Assembly: GCF_945952365.1 (NCBI RefSeq)
Contig: NZ_CAMFHX010000006.1
Span: 1 to 64,000, forward strand
Reading direction: 5' to 3'
Length of the DNA: 64,000 bases
From: an uncultured Cetobacterium sp.
GTDB taxonomy: Bacteria; Fusobacteriota; Fusobacteriia; Fusobacteriales; Fusobacteriaceae
Position numbers and translations under genes: made by a program. Below the pieces are notes generated by a model that was not told the DNA's origin, did no database searches, and was given only the letters and a program-made list of their open reading frames with translations. Shown here in pieces: positions 1,367 through 52,013 of this stretch (the first letter of the stretch is position 1; each line of letters opens with the position of its first letter).

Positions 1367-2287
1367 TTATTTGAAAAGTGAATATAAGTAAGTTGCGTAA
1401 ACTGTTAAGAACAGTAAACCATGAATTCTATTTAGTCTATATTTTCTTAAAACAAAAAGTAATAATAAAAGCGAAGCAACTATGTTTAGAGTTAAATCGA
1501 TAATAGCTCCAGAGCTGATATCAATAGGTGATATTACAGCAGAAACTCCTAAAATAAGGAATGTATTAAAGATGTTTGACCCCACAACATTTCCGATAGC
1601 AATATCTGTATTTTTTTTGAATGCAGCTATTACAGAAGTAGCTAACTCGGGAAGAGAAGTCCCTAATGAAACAACTGTTATTGAGATTACCCTTTCTGAG
1701 ATTCCGAAATTTCTAGCTAAGTCTACGGCTGAATCAACAATAAATTTCCCACCGAAAACTAAAAGAACAAATCCAAGAATTGTAACAATAATAGAAATCG
1801 GTAAAGTGTAATTTTTTACTTCTAGTTCACTTTCCTCTTTATTTGTAACTGTTAAGTAAGTATTGTATAAAAGGAATAGAATGAAACATCCTAATAAGAT
1901 GAAACCGTCAGCCTTACTTAAAACTCCATTCTTAGATAAAACATAAGTTAAAACAGCTGCAAAAAGAGCGATTGGAATCTCATATTTGACAGTGTTTCTA
2001 GCAACTGTAAGTGGATATATCAGAGCTGTAACTCCTAAAATAACAAGAACATTGATGATGTTACTTCCGATAACGTTCCCCAGTGTAATCGCTGATTTTC
2101 CATTTAAAGCAGAGATAACATTTACAACTAGCTCTGGTGCAGAAGTACCAAAGGCTACGATAGTCAAACCGATAACAATATTTGGAATGTTAAATCTTTT
2201 AGCAATCACAGAAGCACCATCGACTAAGAAGTTAGCTCCGAAAACTAAAAATGTAACACCCACAAGCAGAATAAATAATGATAACAT
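1367..2287 (-). CDS. Calcium/sodium antiporter, CaCA family (YrbG-like)
   Basis: An inner-membrane cation exchanger of the CaCA family. The two inverted alpha repeats that line the ion path are plain: GTSAPEL at 47-53 with GNVIGSN at 70-76, and GTSLPEL at 209-215 with GNVVGSN at 232-238. The rest is about ten hydrophobic helices split by a short acidic, hydrophilic loop near residues 148-160 (KEESELE). The length, 306 residues, is typical of bacterial YrbG-type proteins. It lies 13 bases after the MATE gene on the same strand and 18 bases before the hydrolase gene, so the three may be cotranscribed. Direction and ion are family-based inferences. Confidence 0.92.
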   Translation of the reverse strand: MLSLFILLVGVTFLVFGANFLVDGASVIAKRFNIPNIVIGLTIVAFGTSAPELVVNVISALNGKSAITLGNVIGSNIINVLVILGVTALIYPLTVARNTVKYEIPIALFAAVLTYVLSKNGVLSKADGFILLGCFILFLLYNTYLTVTNKEESELEVKNYTLPISIIVTILGFVLLVFGGKFIVDSAVDLARNFGISERVISITVVSLGTSLPELATSVIAAFKKNTDIAIGNVVGSNIFNTFLILGVSAVISPIDISSGAIIDLTLNIVASLLLLLFVLRKYRLNRIHGLLFLTVYATYLYSLFK

Positions 2288-2300
2288 GAACCCTCCTAAA

Positions 2301-3656
2301 TTATACTAAGCTTTTAATCCATTTATACGAAGTTACACGAGGATATGACATAGCACATTTAACGATTTCTTCTAAACAGATTATAAAGTATAGTGTCGTT
2401 ATAGATAATCCAGGGATAAAGTATATTGCAGCAAAAGCTAGTGGAATTCCAATAAACCAGATTCCAATCATCTCTACAGCGATTGCGTAAACAACATCTC
2501 CTCCACCTCTTAAAGTACCTATTACTTGTATAATAGCATAAAATCTTGCAGGAATAAAGAAAGCCATAGTTTTTAATACTACATTTACATTTCTAGCTGT
2601 TTCTGGAGTTATTTTGAAAATTCCAACAATAGATGGAGATATAAAGTAGAAAACAAAACCGATAACAATACCAAGTAAAACTCCAAATTGAGAGATTTTT
2701 CTAGAAATATCATAAGCTTCTTGTTTTTCGCCAGCTCCAATTTTATTTCCAATAAGTATTGCTGAGGCTGCACCGATACCGATACCGAAAATATTAAACA
2801 TATTATTTATCGTGATAGCTATCTGCATAGTCGCAGTTGCATTTACTCCAAGTTGTGCATATGCTATAGAGAAAGTTGAAATCCCTAAAATCCACATAAT
2901 ATCGTTGAAGATAACAGGTGAAGCTATTTTGAAAAACTCTTTGAATTTTTCAACCGAAAGATTTCTGTAACTATTGAATTTTGTAGCAATAACATTGTCA
3001 AACTTATAGATAGCAAACAAAATAAACAGTAACTCCATAGTTCTAGAGATTGTAGTTCCGAGAGCTGCACCAGTAACTCCAAGTTTTGGTGCTCCAAATT
3101 TTCCAAATATAAATAGATAATTTAAAATTCCATTGAATACAATACCGACAATACTTCCATACATAGGTAGTTTTGTTTGTGCTGTACTTCTAAGAGCCAT
3201 AGAGAAAGCTAAAGTTATAGATGAAAGAACATAACTTATAGCAACAGTTCTAAGATAGCTAACTCCAAGTTGTGTAACTGTTGGATCCTTTAGAAATATG
3301 TGTATTATTTTTTCTGGGAATAAAACAGCTATACTTGCAAAAAATATTGAAACAACTACAGATATAAGAAGAGATAAATCTAAAAATTCATGTATTTTCT
3401 TAACATCTTTTTTACCCCAAAGTTGTGACATAAAGATAGATGCACCCATTCCGATACCAGCAACTGAGTAGAAGAAAATCATATAAAATTGATTTGATAA
3501 ACCAACAGCAGCTATTTCGCTTTCTCCAAGCTTTCCAACCATAATATTATCTAATAGGTTTAGAGAAGCTGTGATTAAACTTTGTAAAATGATGGGAATG
3601 GCTAAAGCCATTAACATTTTGATAAAACTTTTTTCGAACTTAAATTTTTGAATCAT
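2301..3656 (-). CDS. MATE family efflux transporter
   Basis: A multidrug and toxin extrusion exporter, inner membrane, 451 residues with about twelve transmembrane helices in two matching halves. The N-terminal half has the family pattern PIILQSLITASLNLLDNIMVG at residues 21-41, with GLSNQFY following; the second half repeats it around SPVIFNDIMWILGIS. Length and layout match the DinF/NorM superfamily; the exported compound cannot be told. The start ATG is preceded by AAAGGAGTG. A hairpin upstream separates it from the flavin reductase gene, so it may have its own promoter in the 70-base gap. Confidence 0.92.
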   Translation of the reverse strand: MIQKFKFEKSFIKMLMALAIPIILQSLITASLNLLDNIMVGKLGESEIAAVGLSNQFYMIFFYSVAGIGMGASIFMSQLWGKKDVKKIHEFLDLSLLISVVVSIFFASIAVLFPEKIIHIFLKDPTVTQLGVSYLRTVAISYVLSSITLAFSMALRSTAQTKLPMYGSIVGIVFNGILNYLFIFGKFGAPKLGVTGAALGTTISRTMELLFILFAIYKFDNVIATKFNSYRNLSVEKFKEFFKIASPVIFNDIMWILGISTFSIAYAQLGVNATATMQIAITINNMFNIFGIGIGAASAILIGNKIGAGEKQEAYDISRKISQFGVLLGIVIGFVFYFISPSIVGIFKITPETARNVNVVLKTMAFFIPARFYAIIQVIGTLRGGGDVVYAIAVEMIGIWFIGIPLAFAAIYFIPGLSITTLYFIICLEEIVKCAMSYPRVTSYKWIKSLV

Positions 3657-44636: not shown

Positions 44637-44664
44637 AAAAGGTAGGTTAAATTTAACCTACCTT
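44637..44664 (-). terminator. Terminator after the HTH regulator gene
   Basis: GGTAGGTTAAA and TTTAACCTACC form a stem followed on the minus strand by a long T run (CCTTTTTTTT). Confidence 0.85.
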
Positions 44665-44701
44665 AAATAGTTTTAAAAAAATAAAGCTATCTATCAGACT
44701 T

Positions 44702-45802
44702 TTAGAAGATGAATAAATCAGATAAAGATACTTTGATATGATTTATATTTAAAGCTTTTAAGTCAAACTCTTCTATGGAGTAGACAGCCGTTGGAGTGTT
44801 ATATTTCACGTAATTTTTTAGGTCGTTAAATTTAACAACATCTTTAAATTTTATGGAATAAAGTTTTTCTAGTTTTTTTATAATCATATTTGCAAGAGAG
44901 CTAGGGATATTTCTATATACAAAAATATATTTATTTAAAGATAGCTTTTCCTGCTTTGAAAGATTGATGATATTTATCATAAAGAAGTATATAATGAAGC
45001 CTTCGTATATAGTTACCGATGGAATTTTATTTTTTATTTTACTAGTTAATTTAAAGATTTTTTCAGGAAAATCATCAATTAGTATGTTCATAAAATAGTT
45101 GTCTCTTATTTCGAAAATCTCTTTAACAAGTAGAAATATAATCCATTTTTTTAAAGGAACTTTATCATAGATAGCTTTGTTAAAATTTAAATCAAAAAAC
45201 TTACTTAAAATTACTTCTAAATTAAGAATATAATCATTAAGTTTATCTGGATAAAAATCAAGGGTATAATATCTATTTTTTAAAATTTCTGTAAAATAAT
45301 CAGAAAGTTCTTCTAAAATATTAACCTCAAAAGAGGGTGAAATTTTGAAAGAATGTATTTTTTTATCTATAAGATTTGTTGAAAAAGCCATTATAGAGCT
45401 ATTTAAAATAATTTCATTGTAGTAAAAGTTATCATCTACTTTGGATTCGATGTAAGAAGTTGCTTTAGATATATTTTTAAAATTGTTTTGTTTTAAAAAT
45501 GCTCCAAACTGAGTTCTCATTATTTTAGGAAGAAAATCTTTTTCAATAAAATATTTTATAATATATCCTAGAAACATTCTTCTAATATATACTTCATCTC
45601 CTGAAAGAACTAATCCTAAGTTTTTATACCCATCTAACTGTAAATTATATGTTGAAATTTTTATTTTTATTTTTATTTTCGCAAGGTCATAACTTAATGT
45701 TCTTCGAGTGACATTTAATTGTTCAGCAACCTTTGAGATATTTATAAACCTTTCATTTAAAAGTTTAAAAATAATAAAAACAATTCTTTCATCTTTTGTC
45801 AA
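44702..45802 (-). CDS. HTH regulator (Mga/BglG-like), start unclear
   Basis: A DNA-binding regulator with a winged helix near residues 8-45 (FIIFKLLNERFINISKVAEQLNVTRRTLSYDLAKI) followed by a long helical region that looks like PRD-type or Mga-like parts (EFEIRDNYFMNILIDD), but no clear EII or PRD histidine motif. The frame as given begins at TTG 45802 with no ribosome site. The same frame stays open upstream to 45922 (stop at 45925-45923) and encodes sequence that looks like part of a further HTH (NLEKIIYNESNIDI), but with no ATG, GTG or TTG. A start lost by mutation, or an unusual start such as ATT or ATA, is possible. Target unknown. Confidence 0.55.
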   Translation of the reverse strand: MTKDERIVFIIFKLLNERFINISKVAEQLNVTRRTLSYDLAKIKIKIKISTYNLQLDGYKNLGLVLSGDEVYIRRMFLGYIIKYFIEKDFLPKIMRTQFGAFLKQNNFKNISKATSYIESKVDDNFYYNEIILNSSIMAFSTNLIDKKIHSFKISPSFEVNILEELSDYFTEILKNRYYTLDFYPDKLNDYILNLEVILSKFFDLNFNKAIYDKVPLKKWIIFLLVKEIFEIRDNYFMNILIDDFPEKIFKLTSKIKNKIPSVTIYEGFIIYFFMINIINLSKQEKLSLNKYIFVYRNIPSSLANMIIKKLEKLYSIKFKDVVKFNDLKNYVKYNTPTAVYSIEEFDLKALNINHIKVSLSDLFIF

Positions 45803-45922
45803 AGACTGTACTTTTTTAATTTTGTATATAAGATTACTATCTTTTCTAAAAATTTTTATTAGAATTTTTATATCAATATTAGATTCGTTATATATAATTT
45901 TTTCGAGATTTACTTTAAGAAA

Positions 45923-46401
45923 TTAGTATATTCACCAAAATACCCAATTTTAATATATATTTGGTTAATTATCTTGTGTTTGCCCTTCTCTTATTTAATC
46001 GAAAAAATAGAAGAAAATACCAAAAATATAGCCTTAAACTATAAAAATACCAAATTAAGAATACATAAACTTGAATTTACTATTTTACATACAAAAGTCC
46101 ACAAAAATGACGCTCTTATTTCGATTTTAACAGCCTTTATTTTTTTAGCTCTTATGAATACTAGTATTCGTAAAAAATAGCCTCAAAAGTTACAAAACTT
46201 AAAATAAGGCCTTTTGAATATATGTAATACAATTATAATCAAAATGGTCAGAATTACTAAGAATCGAGGGTCGTTTCTCTCGATTTTTACATTTTTAAGA
46301 TATTTTATCTTAAAAAAATAAAAAAATAGCGAAATATATTGAATTTATGAATTTATAATGTTAAAATTAACTAAAAATAAAAATGTATGGAGTGAGTAAA
46401 A
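45923..46401. other. Non-coding interval with palindromes and a repeated octamer
   Basis: About 480 bases with no convincing gene. It holds three direct copies of AAAATACC (45937, 46014, 46044), a near-perfect 22-bp palindrome (46152-46173, core GAATACTAGTATTC), a hairpin AATCGAG/CTCGATT with a T tail (46262-46287), and a small palindrome TTAAGATA-TTT-TATCTTAA (46293-46311). A TATAAT sits at 46233-46238 without a good -35. The region is very AT-rich. Confidence 0.6.
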
Positions 46402-47757
46402 ATGAAGATTTTATCATTACAAATGGAAAATTTTAAAAACATAAAAAATAGTAAAATAGATTTTAAAAATAATCTTTCTGGGATATATGGACCAAATGGA
46501 ACAGGGAAAACTGCTGTAATAGAAGCAATTGATGTTATAAGATTATATTTTAATTCTTTGAAGAGTAAAGAACAAAGTGAAGAGTTAAAAAATAAAATTG
46601 CTAAATTAATAAATATAGATTCAAACACAATGTTTCTTGAAATTATTTTTACAAATGAAGACTTTCAATATAAATTAAAATTAGGTTTTCAAAAGGATAG
46701 ATTAAATAGTGAAAATATTTATGTAACTAATGAAGAATTTTTATATAGAGAAATTGTCAAGAAAAGTGTATTTAAGAATATAGTTACAATTGATAATAGT
46801 GTAGAAACGATAATTCCACAAATTAATTTCAAAGGTAAATTTAATGCTAAAAATAATAAAGAGATAGAGGAGATTTTAAAATCTAAAGAAATATCATTAA
46901 AAAGTTTATATTTTGAATTTGATAAGTTAAATAGCCTATTTTCTTTAGTATATGAACAGATAAAAAAAGTTGAAAAAGAGAAATTAAATTCAGAGATCAA
47001 TCTATTTATGACTCATTGGGAAAAAATAAAAACTACAATCATGACAATGTTTGTAGTAACCTTAAAAGAGCAAGCGTTATATAATTTGGAAATTTTATTA
47101 CCTTTAAAGGCTCATACAGAAAATGCTCATGGAACACTTCCTATAAATTTTGGAAAGAATAGAGGTAATATCTATGAAGAGAAAATAGTTCAGGATTTAG
47201 AAAAAGTAATAGAACAGATAGGAGATATATTCTCTGTTATTATTCCTGATTCTAAACTTATACTGGAGAAAAAAGATGATAGAATAGAGAATGAGAGCAA
47301 AAAAATTGCAGTAAGTCTGTATGTAGAAAAAAATGGCAATAAAATATGTGTGGAAAATGAATCTACAGGAATAATAAAACTAATTTCACTATTATCTGCA
47401 TTAGTTTATTATGTGCAGGATGAGAGAGCTATTGTACTTATAGATGAGCTAGATATTCATATTTTTGAATATCTGTTAGCAATAATGTTAGAAAAGCTCT
47501 CAAAGTATGCAAAGGGACAATTAATTTTTACTGCTCATAATTTACTACCATTAGAGAAATTAAATAGAAACTCTATTATAATTTCTACGATAGAAAAAGA
47601 GCGTACAGCTTATGTATATTTTAAAGGAACTTCAGGAACAACAAATCTTAGACAGAAGTATTTAAGATCTCAAACTTTATGGAGTGAATCAAATATAAGC
47701 CCATTATTATTGAATGAATATGCTTTGGAACTATATTTGAGAAAGTTGGTGAAGTAA
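46402..47757 (+). CDS. AAA ATPase of the AbiL/RloA/OLD type
   Basis: An SMC/RecF-like ATPase, 451 residues. LSLQMENFKNIKNSKIDF and the Walker A GPNGTGKT (residues 30-37) come first; then a central insert (about 60-300) that includes a coiled segment (LVYEQIKKVEKEKLNSEINL). An ABC-like signature region is NESTGIIKLISLLSALV near 318-334, Walker B is IVLIDELD with Asp348 and Glu349, and the H-loop has His379 in FTAHN. GGAGTGAG is its ribosome site. Two bases later a TOPRIM-like gene follows. The layout matches two-gene defence systems (AbiL, RloAB, PARIS), but neither a name nor function can be assigned from sequence alone. Confidence 0.8.
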   Translation: MKILSLQMENFKNIKNSKIDFKNNLSGIYGPNGTGKTAVIEAIDVIRLYFNSLKSKEQSEELKNKIAKLINIDSNTMFLEIIFTNEDFQYKLKLGFQKDRLNSENIYVTNEEFLYREIVKKSVFKNIVTIDNSVETIIPQINFKGKFNAKNNKEIEEILKSKEISLKSLYFEFDKLNSLFSLVYEQIKKVEKEKLNSEINLFMTHWEKIKTTIMTMFVVTLKEQALYNLEILLPLKAHTENAHGTLPINFGKNRGNIYEEKIVQDLEKVIEQIGDIFSVIIPDSKLILEKKDDRIENESKKIAVSLYVEKNGNKICVENESTGIIKLISLLSALVYYVQDERAIVLIDELDIHIFEYLLAIMLEKLSKYAKGQLIFTAHNLLPLEKLNRNSIIISTIEKERTAYVYFKGTSGTTNLRQKYLRSQTLWSESNISPLLLNEYALELYLRKLVK

Positions 47758-47759
47758 AA

Positions 47760-48425
47760 ATGAGAGAAAAAGTTTTTTTATTTATAGTTGAAGGACCTAG
47801 TGATCAAGATGCACTAATACCTTGGATAGCAAATGAGTTGAGAAAATTAAAAATAAAGGTGACTGTAAAAGTTGTTTATGGAGATTTATTAACTGAATAT
47901 GTCCAAAATAGTAAGGGAATTTTCAACATTACCTCATCTAATGTAAAAGGAAAAATTAAAAATATTGTAGATGAATTTATAAAAAGTCCAATAATTAAGG
48001 CGGATCAAATAAAACTTAAGGATATACAAAAGATTTACTATGTCACAGATACGGATAATTGTTTTTTCAATCAAAAAGATAGTTCAATTAATAAGAGGAA
48101 TTGTTTGTCTAAAATGTTTAATTTTAAGATGATAGAAGTAAATACTACGAAAAATATAGAATTTGAAGTTATATTTTTTAGTCAAAATTTAGAAGATGTA
48201 CTTTGTTCTAAAAAAGATGCAACAGATGATGAAAAAGAAAGAATCTCTATTGAATTTGGGATGAAAACTCTAAAGGATAGGGATTTATTTATAAAAACTT
48301 TTACAGAGGAAAATTTAAAGACATGGAACAGTTATTCTGATAGTTATGAAGGGATAAAAAATTATACAGACAGAGCTTGTAATATGAATAATTTGATTGA
48401 TGAAATAGAAAATTTTAATAGTTAA
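47760..48425 (+). CDS. TOPRIM-like partner of the ATPase
   Basis: A 221-residue protein with a TOPRIM-like pattern: the first strand VFLFIVEGPSDQDAL has Glu11, with a glycine and Asp15 after it, and the second acidic motif is YYVTDTDNC with Asp97 and Asp99. TOPRIM domains of this kind (RloB, AriB, AbiLii) cut or bind nucleic acid with Mg. The part between and after has long charged helices and no further motif I can name. It begins two bases after the ATPase stop, so they are surely cotranscribed. The ribosome site is the AGTTGGTGAAG in the end of the ATPase gene. The catalytic role is inferred from motif spacing. Confidence 0.7.
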   Translation: MREKVFLFIVEGPSDQDALIPWIANELRKLKIKVTVKVVYGDLLTEYVQNSKGIFNITSSNVKGKIKNIVDEFIKSPIIKADQIKLKDIQKIYYVTDTDNCFFNQKDSSINKRNCLSKMFNFKMIEVNTTKNIEFEVIFFSQNLEDVLCSKKDATDDEKERISIEFGMKTLKDRDLFIKTFTEENLKTWNSYSDSYEGIKNYTDRACNMNNLIDEIENFNS

Positions 48426-48459
48426 GTTGCCAATTAGATTATAAAATAAAGGAGTAAAA

Positions 48460-49536
48460 ATGAAATTTGAGAACTGGATGGCATTAAAGTTCATCTCAGA
48501 AAACAAAAAAAAGATTATATTACCATTTTTAGCTATAGTAGCCTCAACAGTTCTTATTTTTCTATCAATAACTTTGAAAGCGAGTATAACTAAAACAGTA
48601 GAAAAAGATCTAAGAACTATGGGAAAAAATAGCATCCTAATAGGTGGAGATAGCATAACCTCAAAAGATATAGCTTTCATAAATAGTATTCCAGATGTAG
48701 ATTACTATCTTTATCCCGATAGTTTTAAAGAGGACGATGAGATTTTATTTAAAGGTTATCCAAATGAACTTTTAAAAAAGATGAATCTACCAGAATTAAG
48801 AGATAGTGACATCATCTTAGATAAAACCCAATTCTCAGATAGAAAAATAGGAGATAGAATCCTACTTTCTATAAATGGCGAAAGAAAAGAGTTTTTCATA
48901 AGAGAATTTTATGAAGAGTTAAATCCTCTTGAAACTATGAAAGTAGGAAAAAGAGCTATTCTAAGTCAATTGGGCTTCGATTCTAATGTTGTAAAATATG
49001 ATTATAAAAGAGTCTTGATTGTCTTTAAAGAGAGTGCTGATTCAAATGATTATATACCTATGATTATAAGCAGTTTAAACATAGGAAGAGAGAATAAAAT
49101 AAAGCTTTTAGAAACACCAGATCTGTTTAAAAAGATAAATAAAATAATCTCATTTTTAAATAAAGCACTATTTTTAATGCTAGCTCTTGGAGTTGGAATA
49201 GCAGGATTTTTCACTTTTAATATAACTATGACCTCTTTACTCGAAAAGAAAAGCAGCATAGGGATATTAAGTGCTGTCGGAATGAGTAAAAGTAGAGTGT
49301 TCAGAATATTCTTAATTCAAAATATCTATATACTACTTTCGGGACTTTTTTTAGGAGTAGTTTTAGGGTATTCTATTTTAAAAGTTATAGAGTTGGTTTT
49401 AAATATATCTATATACTTAGATGGTTTAAAAGTGTTTAGTTTTATTTTTACAATAATAACACTAGGGATGCTATTAGGTATAGTTCCAATAAAAAAGATT
49501 CAGAAGTTATCGATTATAGAGTTATTAAAAGTATAG
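48460..49536 (+). CDS. FtsX/MacB-type ABC permease, orphan
   Basis: A 358-residue membrane protein with one N-terminal helix (IILPFLAIVASTVLIFLSI), a large extracytoplasmic domain (about 45-225), and three C-terminal helices, the layout of half a LolC/MacB/FtsX permease. SSIGILSAVGMSKSRVFRIF near residues 265-284 is the family's conserved cytoplasmic loop. Such proteins need an ATPase, normally next door, and none is here; the neighbour is the ATPase/TOPRIM pair, which is a different kind of ATPase. TAAAGGAGTAAAA is its ribosome site. Substrate unknown. Confidence 0.8.
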   Translation: MKFENWMALKFISENKKKIILPFLAIVASTVLIFLSITLKASITKTVEKDLRTMGKNSILIGGDSITSKDIAFINSIPDVDYYLYPDSFKEDDEILFKGYPNELLKKMNLPELRDSDIILDKTQFSDRKIGDRILLSINGERKEFFIREFYEELNPLETMKVGKRAILSQLGFDSNVVKYDYKRVLIVFKESADSNDYIPMIISSLNIGRENKIKLLETPDLFKKINKIISFLNKALFLMLALGVGIAGFFTFNITMTSLLEKKSSIGILSAVGMSKSRVFRIFLIQNIYILLSGLFLGVVLGYSILKVIELVLNISIYLDGLKVFSFIFTIITLGMLLGIVPIKKIQKLSIIELLKV

Positions 49537-49547
49537 GGGATGTATTG

Positions 49548-49577
49548 AAGCTAGGTTCGTGAGAATCTAGCTTTTTT
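49548..49577 (+). terminator. Terminator after the FtsX-type gene
   Basis: AAGCTAGGTTC-GTGA-GAATCTAGCTT is an 11-bp stem (one G-U) with a tetraloop, followed by TTTTT. Confidence 0.9.
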
Positions 49578-49639
49578 TGATACCTAATATGAAATATGGT
49601 ATAATAATCTAAATGTTAAAAGAGAAAGGGTGTGAAAGC

Positions 49640-51289
49640 ATGAATAAAAAAAAATTACCAATTGGTAAAAGTGACTTTAAAGAAATCATAGGTGGAAATT
49701 ACTACTATGTTGATAAAACTGGATTTATAGAAGAGGTTTTAGAAAAAAATTATGAGGTAACCTTAATTTGTAGACCACGACGTTTTGGAAAAACTTTGAA
49801 CATGAGTGCCTTAAAATACTTTTTAGATATGAAAGATGCTGAAGAGAATAGAAAACTTTTTAAGGGATTAAAGATAGAAAAAACAGAGTACATAAAAAGA
49901 GCAGGAAAATATCCGGTTATATTCTTAACCTTAAAAGATTTATCTGGAAAAAATTATCAAGATTTCTTTTCAGAGTTTAAAAAACTAATTAGTAGACTAT
50001 TCAAAGAGCATAAACACCTTTTAAAACTTTTAGATGAATATGATTTTGAAAATTTTGATAAAATTTTAAGAAGAAAAGATGAAGCTGATTATGATACTGC
50101 ATTACAGTTTTTGTCAGAACTTTATAAAGAGTATGTAGGTGTTAAACCGGTGTTATTGATAGACGAGTATGATTCACCAATGATAATAGCTAATGAAAAA
50201 GGTTATTATGAAGATGTAAAAGAGCTTATGAGTACTTTCTATGGAAGCTCTTTAAAGGATGCACCAATATCTTTTGCAGTTGTAACAGGAATTTTAAGAG
50301 TGGCGAAAGAATCTATTTTTTCGAGTTTAAATAATTTGAAAGTAAGCACTTTATTAAAAGGTGATTACAATCATTTTGGTATGAATGAAACCGAAGTAGA
50401 AGAGATTTTGAAGCATTATAATTTAGAAACAACTATGGAGTGTGCTAAAAGTTGGTATAACGGTTATACTTTTAATAATCAGAAAATCTATAATCCTTGG
50501 AGTATTATAAATCATTGTGATTCTGGTAAATTGGAGAGTTATTGGGTAAATACTAGTGCTAATACTTTAATTATGGAACTTTTAAAAGAAGCAGATTTGG
50601 ATATAAAGGATATCTTTTATAATCTATTAAACGGTGGAAGTGCAAGAACTATTCTAGATGACAATATGATTTTTGGAGAAAAATATAGCCACAGTACAAT
50701 TTTATACTTAATGTTTTCAGCTGGCTATTTGACTATAGATAGATATGGAGAAGAGGATGATGAGTACTATCTGAGAATTCCTAACCTTGAAGTTAAGAAA
50801 TATTTTAAAAAAACGTTTTTAAATATATTAACTAACAGTAATAGAGATAGTTTTTCTAAATTGAAAGATGCTTTATTAATTGGAAAAATCTATGGGAATG
50901 ACTCAATAGAGGAAAAGATAAACTCGATGTTTTTGGCGAGTATGAGCTATTTAGATGGTTCCAAAGAGGAGAAGTTTTATCATAATTTAATTTTAGGAAT
51001 GATAATAGGACTCGATAGTACTTTTTATATTCATTCAAATAGAGAGGAAGGTCTAGGGCGTTATGATTTAGCTTTAGAACCAAAAGATAAAAATAGAATT
51101 GGATATATTTTTGAGTTTAAAGTGGCAAGTTCAACTTCAGAAAGTGATTTTGATGCAGCTGGAAAAGATGCTTTAAATCAGATAGATAAGAAAATATATG
51201 AAAACGGATTGAAAGAGCGTGGAATAACTAAAATAGTTAAGATAGGTTTGGTATTTTCAAGTAAATCGATGAAAATATATTCAAAGTAA
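49640..51289 (+). CDS. AAA-ATPase-like and PD-(D/E)XK nuclease-like protein
   Basis: A 549-residue protein of the AAA-ATPase_like (DUF1703) group, common in Bacteroidetes, Clostridia and fusobacteria in many copies. The ATPase domain opens KLPIGKSDFKEIIGGNYYYVDKTGFI with the P-loop RPRRFGKT at residues 45-52 and Walker B PVLLIDEYDSP near 170-180. The C-terminal end has a PD-(D/E)XK-like set: Asp476 in GRYDLALEP and Glu492-x-Lys494 in FEFKVA. Its biological role is not settled. The start is at ATG 49640 rather than the in-frame TTG/ATG at 49613. It is single, behind a terminator. Confidence 0.85.
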   Translation: MNKKKLPIGKSDFKEIIGGNYYYVDKTGFIEEVLEKNYEVTLICRPRRFGKTLNMSALKYFLDMKDAEENRKLFKGLKIEKTEYIKRAGKYPVIFLTLKDLSGKNYQDFFSEFKKLISRLFKEHKHLLKLLDEYDFENFDKILRRKDEADYDTALQFLSELYKEYVGVKPVLLIDEYDSPMIIANEKGYYEDVKELMSTFYGSSLKDAPISFAVVTGILRVAKESIFSSLNNLKVSTLLKGDYNHFGMNETEVEEILKHYNLETTMECAKSWYNGYTFNNQKIYNPWSIINHCDSGKLESYWVNTSANTLIMELLKEADLDIKDIFYNLLNGGSARTILDDNMIFGEKYSHSTILYLMFSAGYLTIDRYGEEDDEYYLRIPNLEVKKYFKKTFLNILTNSNRDSFSKLKDALLIGKIYGNDSIEEKINSMFLASMSYLDGSKEEKFYHNLILGMIIGLDSTFYIHSNREEGLGRYDLALEPKDKNRIGYIFEFKVASSTSESDFDAAGKDALNQIDKKIYENGLKERGITKIVKIGLVFSSKSMKIYSK

Positions 51290-51314
51290 GATAAGAGATA
51301 GATGGGGGAGAAAA

Positions 51315-51992
51315 ATGGTTGATATACACAGTCATATTCTGTTTGGGGTTGATGATGGAGCAGAAACACTAGAGGAGTCTTTACAGCTTTGTAGAGAGGC
51401 TGTTAAGCTTGGATATAAAGATATTGTTTGTAGCTCACACTATAAAAAAGGAAAGTATGAAAATAAAAACTATGCTGAAAATTTTAAGCTGTTAAAGATA
51501 GCGTTGAAAGAGAAGCGTATAGACATAAATATTCATCCAGGAAATGAGATCTATTTGGATATGGACACATTTTTTAGTTTAGATGAGAAAAAATTTAATA
51601 CTTTAGGGGATAGTAACTATATATTGGTAGAGTTTCCAAGAGGACTACTTTTCAAAGTAAAATACAGCATGATCTCTTCACTCATAAATAAAGGGTATAA
51701 AATTATTATAGCTCATATAGAAAGATACCCAGAGCTATCAAAAGAGGAGATTTTAAAGTTTAAGGAGCTAGGGGTTAAAATACAAAGTAATATAAGTGCT
51801 ATTCCTGGATTGTTGAAAAAAGATAACTTGCTTTACTCTGAAAATATAGTAGATATTTTAGCGTCTGATGCTCATAACTTAGAGTACAGAAACTACTCTT
51901 TTCATAGAGAGTTTATTTTATTTAAAACTTTTATTGGAGAGGGAAAATTAAAAATTTTAACAGAGGATTCACCTCGTGAGATTTTAAAATAA
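51315..51992 (+). CDS. CpsB/YwqE-type tyrosine-protein phosphatase, PHP domain
   Basis: A PHP-fold metal-dependent phosphatase, 225 residues. It begins VDIHSHILFGVDDGAETLEESL, the CpsB signature with metal ligands DIHSH at residues 3-7 and VDDG. The other ligands are in CSSHYKKGKYE near 40-50, IHPGNEIY near 72-79, IIAHIERYPE near 134-143, and SDAHN near 187-191. In other bacteria it dephosphorylates a capsule tyrosine kinase, but no capsule genes are near. GATGGGGGAG precedes the start. Confidence 0.9.
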   Translation: MVDIHSHILFGVDDGAETLEESLQLCREAVKLGYKDIVCSSHYKKGKYENKNYAENFKLLKIALKEKRIDINIHPGNEIYLDMDTFFSLDEKKFNTLGDSNYILVEFPRGLLFKVKYSMISSLINKGYKIIIAHIERYPELSKEEILKFKELGVKIQSNISAIPGLLKKDNLLYSENIVDILASDAHNLEYRNYSFHREFILFKTFIGEGKLKILTEDSPREILK

Positions 51993-52013
51993 AGTAAGTG
52001 AAAGTGGGGAAAT

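What the first reader, a model, noticed from the sequence alone, without database searches (positions are those of the whole stretch)
46402..48425. Two-gene ATPase + TOPRIM cassette resembling a phage-defence system
An SMC/RecF-like ATPase (Walker A GPNGTGKT, Walker B with Asp348-Glu349, H-loop His379) is followed two bases later by a small protein with a TOPRIM-like acidic set (Glu11, Asp97, Asp99). Known pairs of this type (AbiL, RloAB, PARIS AriA/AriB) stop phages. I cannot match either protein to one named subtype: the partner starts VEGPSDQDAL and is only 221 residues. It is flanked by unrelated genes and by an AT-rich palindromic interval, as for a mobile defence island. It could be a new branch.
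Basis: partly seen in the sequence, partly recalled or inferred. Interest (0 to 1): 0.75.

Follow-up and report, generated by a model that had tools for sequence, protein, structure and literature searches.

The report
AbiL-like ATPase plus TOPRIM-like effector pair
A real, mobile two-gene cassette in a Cetobacterium genome pairs an AbiL/RloA-like ATPase with a small nuclease-like protein that no tested family model recognises; it is probably a phage-defence system of a known general kind, in a branch that I found no name for.

Summary
In detail: at 46402-47757 and 47760-48425 there are two intact genes, 2 nt apart, with the stated motifs. The pair recurs: partner homologues lie directly downstream of the same kind of ATPase in Fusobacteriales, Lachnospiraceae and other Clostridia, spirochaetes and Fibrobacter, some on plasmids or beside mobile genes. 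The ATPase is of the RloA/AbiLi kind (profile-profile E 5e-23) but forms its own clade (99/93). The partner matches no model in Pfam, PADLOC, NCBIfam or PHROGs; its confident model (pLDDT 96) and 40 sequences show an invariant E11, D97xD99 set at the strand ends expected for TOPRIM, but no solved or viral fold matched significantly. In close relatives the site is empty or holds other genes, so the cassette is accessory. Best reading: a distinct, apparently unnamed branch of the ATPase-TOPRIM (AbiL/RloAB/PARIS-like) abortive-infection kind, in which the ATPase senses phage and holds or arms a metal-dependent nuclease effector. It is not PARIS by PARIS's own detection rule, and not AbiLii/RloB by the RloB model. 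Defence function is inferred, not shown; a neighbour-gene enrichment test was inconclusive. New variant of a known kind; moderate interest.

The parts
46402..47757 (+). RloA/AbiLi-like ABC (AAA_15/AAA_21) ATPase, 451 aa; predicted sensor/regulator
47760..48425 (+). TOPRIM-like partner, 221 aa; predicted metal-dependent nuclease effector (E11, D42, D97, D99, N143, E145)
46258..46401 (+). leader: terminator-like stem-loop (46258-46289) and a promoter-like site with extended -10 (46339-46367) ahead of the ATPase; consensus matches only
46077..46130 (.). about 54-bp dispersed intergenic repeat of the genus inside the AT-rich interval
44656..52005 (.). variable block between the moeA side and the RpiR-type regulator; absent from one congener, replaced in another; contains the pair

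Best explanation
A two-gene anti-phage (abortive-infection type) cassette. The first protein is a dimeric or larger ABC ATPase of the RloA/AbiLi kind that binds or restrains the second and responds to a phage-made signal; on triggering it releases or arms the second protein, a two-metal TOPRIM-fold nuclease that damages a target needed by phage and cell (an RNA such as tRNA, as AriB does, or DNA) and halts growth. SHOWN here by sequence: the two genes, their close pairing, invariant catalytic-type residues, accessory and mobile distribution. INFERRED: complex formation, nuclease activity, target, trigger, and protection against phage.
For: Gene order: partner directly downstream of a Walker A/B ATPase in 40 of 51 loci by a strict motif test, and most of the rest are contig edges or pass a looser look. 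ATPase aligns with RloA-type ATPases over full length, E 4.7e-23, and gives the AbiLi model 2.5e-25; all 13 ATPases tested hit AbiLi. Partner: invariant E11/G12, D42, D97, D99, K159 in 40 sequences; model with E11 at the end of strand 1 and D97xD99 at the end of a later core strand, the TOPRIM arrangement; motifs align in register with RloB, score 28 against 12-14 for reversed or unrelated profiles. Accessory: empty site in congener G007, other operon in G008. Homologues on Cetobacterium plasmids beside IS256, cas13c and HepT/nucleotidyltransferase genes, near an integrase on a Ruminococcus plasmid, in a Clostridioides phage-like record, and upstream of an hsdR-like gene in G004 (hsdR named by eye). 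Intact ATPase with broken or missing partner occurs (L054, L085, G047, plasmid unnamed4) but no secure case of the reverse. Published: F. nucleatum AbiLii is toxic in E. coli (PMC3985639); AAA + TOPRIM_OLD pairs behave as toxin-antitoxin pairs in E. coli (PMC10440598); AriB is a two-metal tRNase (PMC12409363).
Against: No family model, and neither the PDB nor the viral fold library, recognises the partner significantly; the OLD TOPRIM domain is only a rank-18, non-significant match. The link to RloB is weak (probability 9%). Immediate neighbours here are not defence genes, and the enrichment test of neighbours elsewhere was not interpretable because the control set held a defence island. No phage assay exists. 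In F. nucleatum AbiLi did not neutralise AbiLii, and PARIS subunit deletions are non-toxic (PMC3985639, PMC9122126), so a simple toxin-antitoxin reading is not assured.
Confidence: 0.66

Rival explanations
1. A stand-alone toxin-antitoxin module: the TOPRIM-like protein is a toxin kept silent by the ATPase and maintained mainly by addiction on plasmids and islands, with phage defence incidental.
For: Intact ATPase with lost or broken partner is seen several times, the reverse not securely; plasmid carriage; AAA-neutralised TOPRIM_OLD pairs were validated as toxin-antitoxin pairs (PMC10440598).
Against: F. nucleatum AbiLi did not neutralise AbiLii (PMC3985639); a full ABC ATPase with intact catalytic motifs is more than a plain antitoxin needs; small number of cases.
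Confidence: 0.18
2. A diverged member of AbiL/RloAB proper: the partner is simply a fast-evolving AbiLii/RloB that the models miss.
For: ATPase profile match to RloA-type E 4.7e-23; catalytic motifs in register with RloB; third motif N-x-E resembles RloB's SN..FE.
Against: Partner gives no RloB hit in any of 12 members up to E 1; ATPases of the two kinds form separate supported clades with different Walker A types, G[PQ]NG.GKT against GANASGK[ST].
Confidence: 0.1
3. A DNA-repair or recombination pair (RecF/Rad50-like ATPase with a nuclease) of the host chromosome rather than a defence system.
For: Best PDB folds for the ATPase are Rad50 and SMC heads as well as PtuA.
Against: Patchy presence, different sites, decay into pseudogenes, plasmid and phage-like carriage.
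Confidence: 0.06

Closest known systems
AbiL (AbiLi/AbiLii) and RloAB
   Same: Two-gene operon, ATPase first; ATPase homologous over full length and best PADLOC model AbiLi; partner with TOPRIM-type E ... DxD ... N-x-E motifs
   Different: Partner not recognised as RloB/AbiLii; ATPase in its own clade with another Walker A type
PARIS (AriA/AriB, DUF4435)
   Same: AAA_15/AAA_21 ATPase plus separate TOPRIM-like effector gene
   Different: Partner has no DUF4435 match, so it fails the published detection rule (PMC9122126)
PDC-M38A/B (DUF3226 partner)
   Same: ATPase plus about 240-aa partner; one such pair is in the same genome (L089)
   Different: ATPases align only over about 105 C-terminal columns, partners not at all
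OLD / GajA / class 1-3 OLD nucleases
   Same: ABC ATPase with TOPRIM nuclease
   Different: Here two separate proteins; partner not significantly matched by OLD-like_TOPRIM
Septu / retron PtuA
   Same: Fold of the ATPase
   Different: Partner does not match an HNH PtuB and no reverse transcriptase gene adjoins the pair

Membership tests
PARIS | AAA_15 >= 32 bits or AAA_21 >= 27 bits | tested here: met
   48.5 and 48.8 bits; rule from PMC9122126
PARIS | DUF4435 partner >= 27 bits | tested here: not met
   no DUF4435 match in 12 members up to E 1; profile comparison with local DUF4435 proteins not significant
AbiL / RloAB | RloA/AbiLi-type ATPase | tested here: met
   AbiLi PDLC02335 2.5e-25; RloA-type profile E 4.7e-23; but separate clade in tree
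AbiL / RloAB | RloB (PF13707)/AbiLii partner | tested here: not met
   no PF13707 match in partner family; only motif register in profile comparison
TOPRIM superfamily | Glu at end of strand 1 and DxD at end of a later core strand in an alternating alpha/beta fold | tested here: met
   E11 after E4-10; D97xD99 after E89-97; 40/40 sequences
TOPRIM superfamily | significant fold match to a solved TOPRIM | tested here: not met
   best PDB matches unrelated and above E 0.001; OLD 6nk8 rank 18 at E 0.04
anti-phage defence system | phage protection dependent on both genes | not testable with these tools
   needs plaque assays
anti-phage defence system | enrichment beside known defence genes | tested here: inconclusive
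   control set held a defence island
PDC-M38 | M38B/DUF3226 partner | tested here: not met
   no M38B match among 12 partners up to E 1

The most novel reading that the evidence does not exclude
A separate, unnamed ATPase-TOPRIM defence system with its own effector family, spread across Fusobacteriota, Clostridia and spirochaetes, whose trigger and cleavage target differ from AbiL and PARIS.
Probability: 0.4. Interest if true: 0.6.

Novelty: new variant of a known kind. Interest (0 to 1): 0.42.

Why it matters
ATPase-TOPRIM pairs are a large defence group in which the effector target is known for few (PARIS AriB cuts tRNA). A compact 221-aa effector with a confident model and an evident residue set would let target and trigger be tested, and it gives a profile to find a branch that the libraries searched here label only by its ATPase, as AbiLi.

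Tried and rejected
Direct HMM naming of the partner (four libraries; nothing below 0.001). First single-sequence scans of genome and viral contigs found nothing; the alignment query found 53 loci in genomes but none in viral contigs. Fold searches of the partner in PDB and BFVD gave no significant match. Defence-neighbour enrichment: the control set taken from the same genome gave strong matches to CRISPR, R-M and Septu models, and generic ABC models also ring, so I make no claim. The FtsX permease (starts 34 nt downstream) was considered as a third subunit and rejected: close homologues of the pair lack it at their own loci, and it is present in G011, where no pair was found (an incomplete genome). 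A broken ATPase beside an intact partner in G006:C7 is probably a sequencing error (two homopolymer-run differences from the intact plasmid copy). I could not fetch the named F. nucleatum AbiLii, L. lactis AbiLii or S. agalactiae D60 sequences to compare directly, nor test DefenseFinder models or libraries newer than PADLOC 2.0.0.

Full report
Observation. The two ORFs lie exactly where stated, 46402-47757 and 47760-48425, 2 nt apart. Motifs were verified: Walker A YGPNGTGKT, VLIDELD with D348-E349, H379; partner E11, D97, D99. In alignments with 33 other ATPases and 39 other partners these residues are invariant; D42, K159, F166 and I199 of the partner are also invariant and N143-x-E/D145 nearly so.

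Host and distribution. The window is contig C6 of a 2.5-Mb genome. Congener contigs identify the genus as Cetobacterium (G004 contig of 5,887 bases = an uncultured Cetobacterium record; G010 contig of 40,685 bases = a C. somerae plasmid). Of 61 genomes of the order, 10 have a match to the partner, patchily, one genome with three copies and some copies decayed; the weakest of these matches are doubtful. A profile query found 53 loci among GTDB species genomes, mostly Lachnospiraceae and other Clostridia, with Fusobacteriales, spirochaetes, Fibrobacter, Fretibacterium and Ruminobacter. The partner's start overlaps or abuts the stop of an ATPase gene; 40 of 51 loci pass a strict Walker A plus Walker B test, and most of the others are contig edges or pass a looser look, such as L070.

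Accessory nature. Aligning the window to congeners shows conserved anchors on both sides (mobA/moeA to the left, an RpiR-type regulator at about 52005 to the right). In G007 only about 23 bp lie between the anchors: an empty site. In G008 the same site holds a PTS/alpha-mannosidase operon (gene names by eye). In G002 other genes follow moeA. The other close Cetobacterium pairs are only 37-46% identical and sit elsewhere. The pair (24.7% G+C) is poorer in G+C than the flanks (28-31%). On plasmids, homologues sit beside IS256 (L031) and near an integrase (L032), and in C. somerae unnamed4 an ATPase without partner lies among HepT/nucleotidyltransferase genes and two cas13c genes. One homologous pair is in a 132-kb Clostridioides phage-like record.

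What the ATPase is. Pfam AAA_15 48.5 bits, AAA_21 48.8; PADLOC AbiLi 2.5e-25, next PtuA and AriA. Profile comparison with ATPases that precede RloB genes in Fusobacteriales: E 4.7e-23 over the full length; with M38A ATPases only the C-terminal Walker B region. A maximum-likelihood tree puts the 33 window-type ATPases in one clade (99/93), the RloB-linked ATPases in another (99/99) and M38A in a third (95/88), so partner type follows ATPase type; several outer branches are long. AlphaFold2 model pLDDT 81, best PDB folds Rad50, SMC and PtuA.

What the partner is. No model in four libraries. AlphaFold2 with 40 sequences: pLDDT 95.8. Strand 4-10 ends at E11-G12, helix 13-28, strand 32-38, helix 62-75, strand 89-97 ends at D97-T-D99, strand 132-140 is followed by N143-L-E145. 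This is the order of the TOPRIM catalytic set (established knowledge of the superfamily). RloB aligns with E and DxD in register, score 28 against 12-14 for reversed and unrelated profiles, yet probability only 9%. DUF4435, DUF3226 and OLD do not align convincingly. Foldseek gives nothing significant in PDB or BFVD, so TOPRIM rests on motif placement and should be called likely, not proven.

How it probably works. By analogy with PARIS, where AriA holds AriB until a trigger frees a two-metal tRNase (PMC12409363), and with AAA-TOPRIM pairs shown to be toxic or neutralised in E. coli (PMC10440598, PMC3985639), the ATPase is the sensor and regulator and the partner the nuclease effector. Cases with an intact ATPase and a broken or lost effector, without a secure converse, fit an effector that is costly to keep, but they are few.

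Membership. PARIS requires a DUF4435 partner (PMC9122126): not met. AbiL/RloAB requires an RloB/AbiLii partner: not met by model, though the ATPase criterion is met. Hence a variant of the same general kind, not a filed member of either.

Limits. Neighbour enrichment was inconclusive. Named AbiLii sequences could not be fetched, and only PADLOC 2.0.0 was available, so a newer library may already name this branch.

Noticed in passing
window 49613-51289: AAA-ATPase_like + PDDEXK_9 gene looks like a clean insertion: congener G011 has both flanks at about 92% identity but lacks window 49620-51292.
   Followed up: partly
L089 (G000:C34), 1498-3327 of the locus: The same genome carries a second ATPase + partner pair, of the PDC-M38A/B kind with a DUF3226 partner.
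   Followed up: partly
window 46077-46130: About 54-bp repeat scattered through Cetobacterium genomes, no transposase noticed beside the copies inspected.
   Followed up: partly
L178-L184 (seven control stretches of the same genome): The control proteins gave strong matches to CRISPR (Cas1, Csm3, RT), type III methyltransferase, DpdF and PtuA models, so at least one stretch probably holds a defence island; which one was not resolved.
   Followed up: no
L177 1-6755: C. somerae plasmid unnamed4: two cas13c genes, HepT and nucleotidyltransferase genes around an ATPase of this family that has no partner.
   Followed up: partly
window 44702-45802: HTH regulator, shorter than its about 470-aa paralogues in the genus; no close homologue found in congeners.
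   Followed up: no
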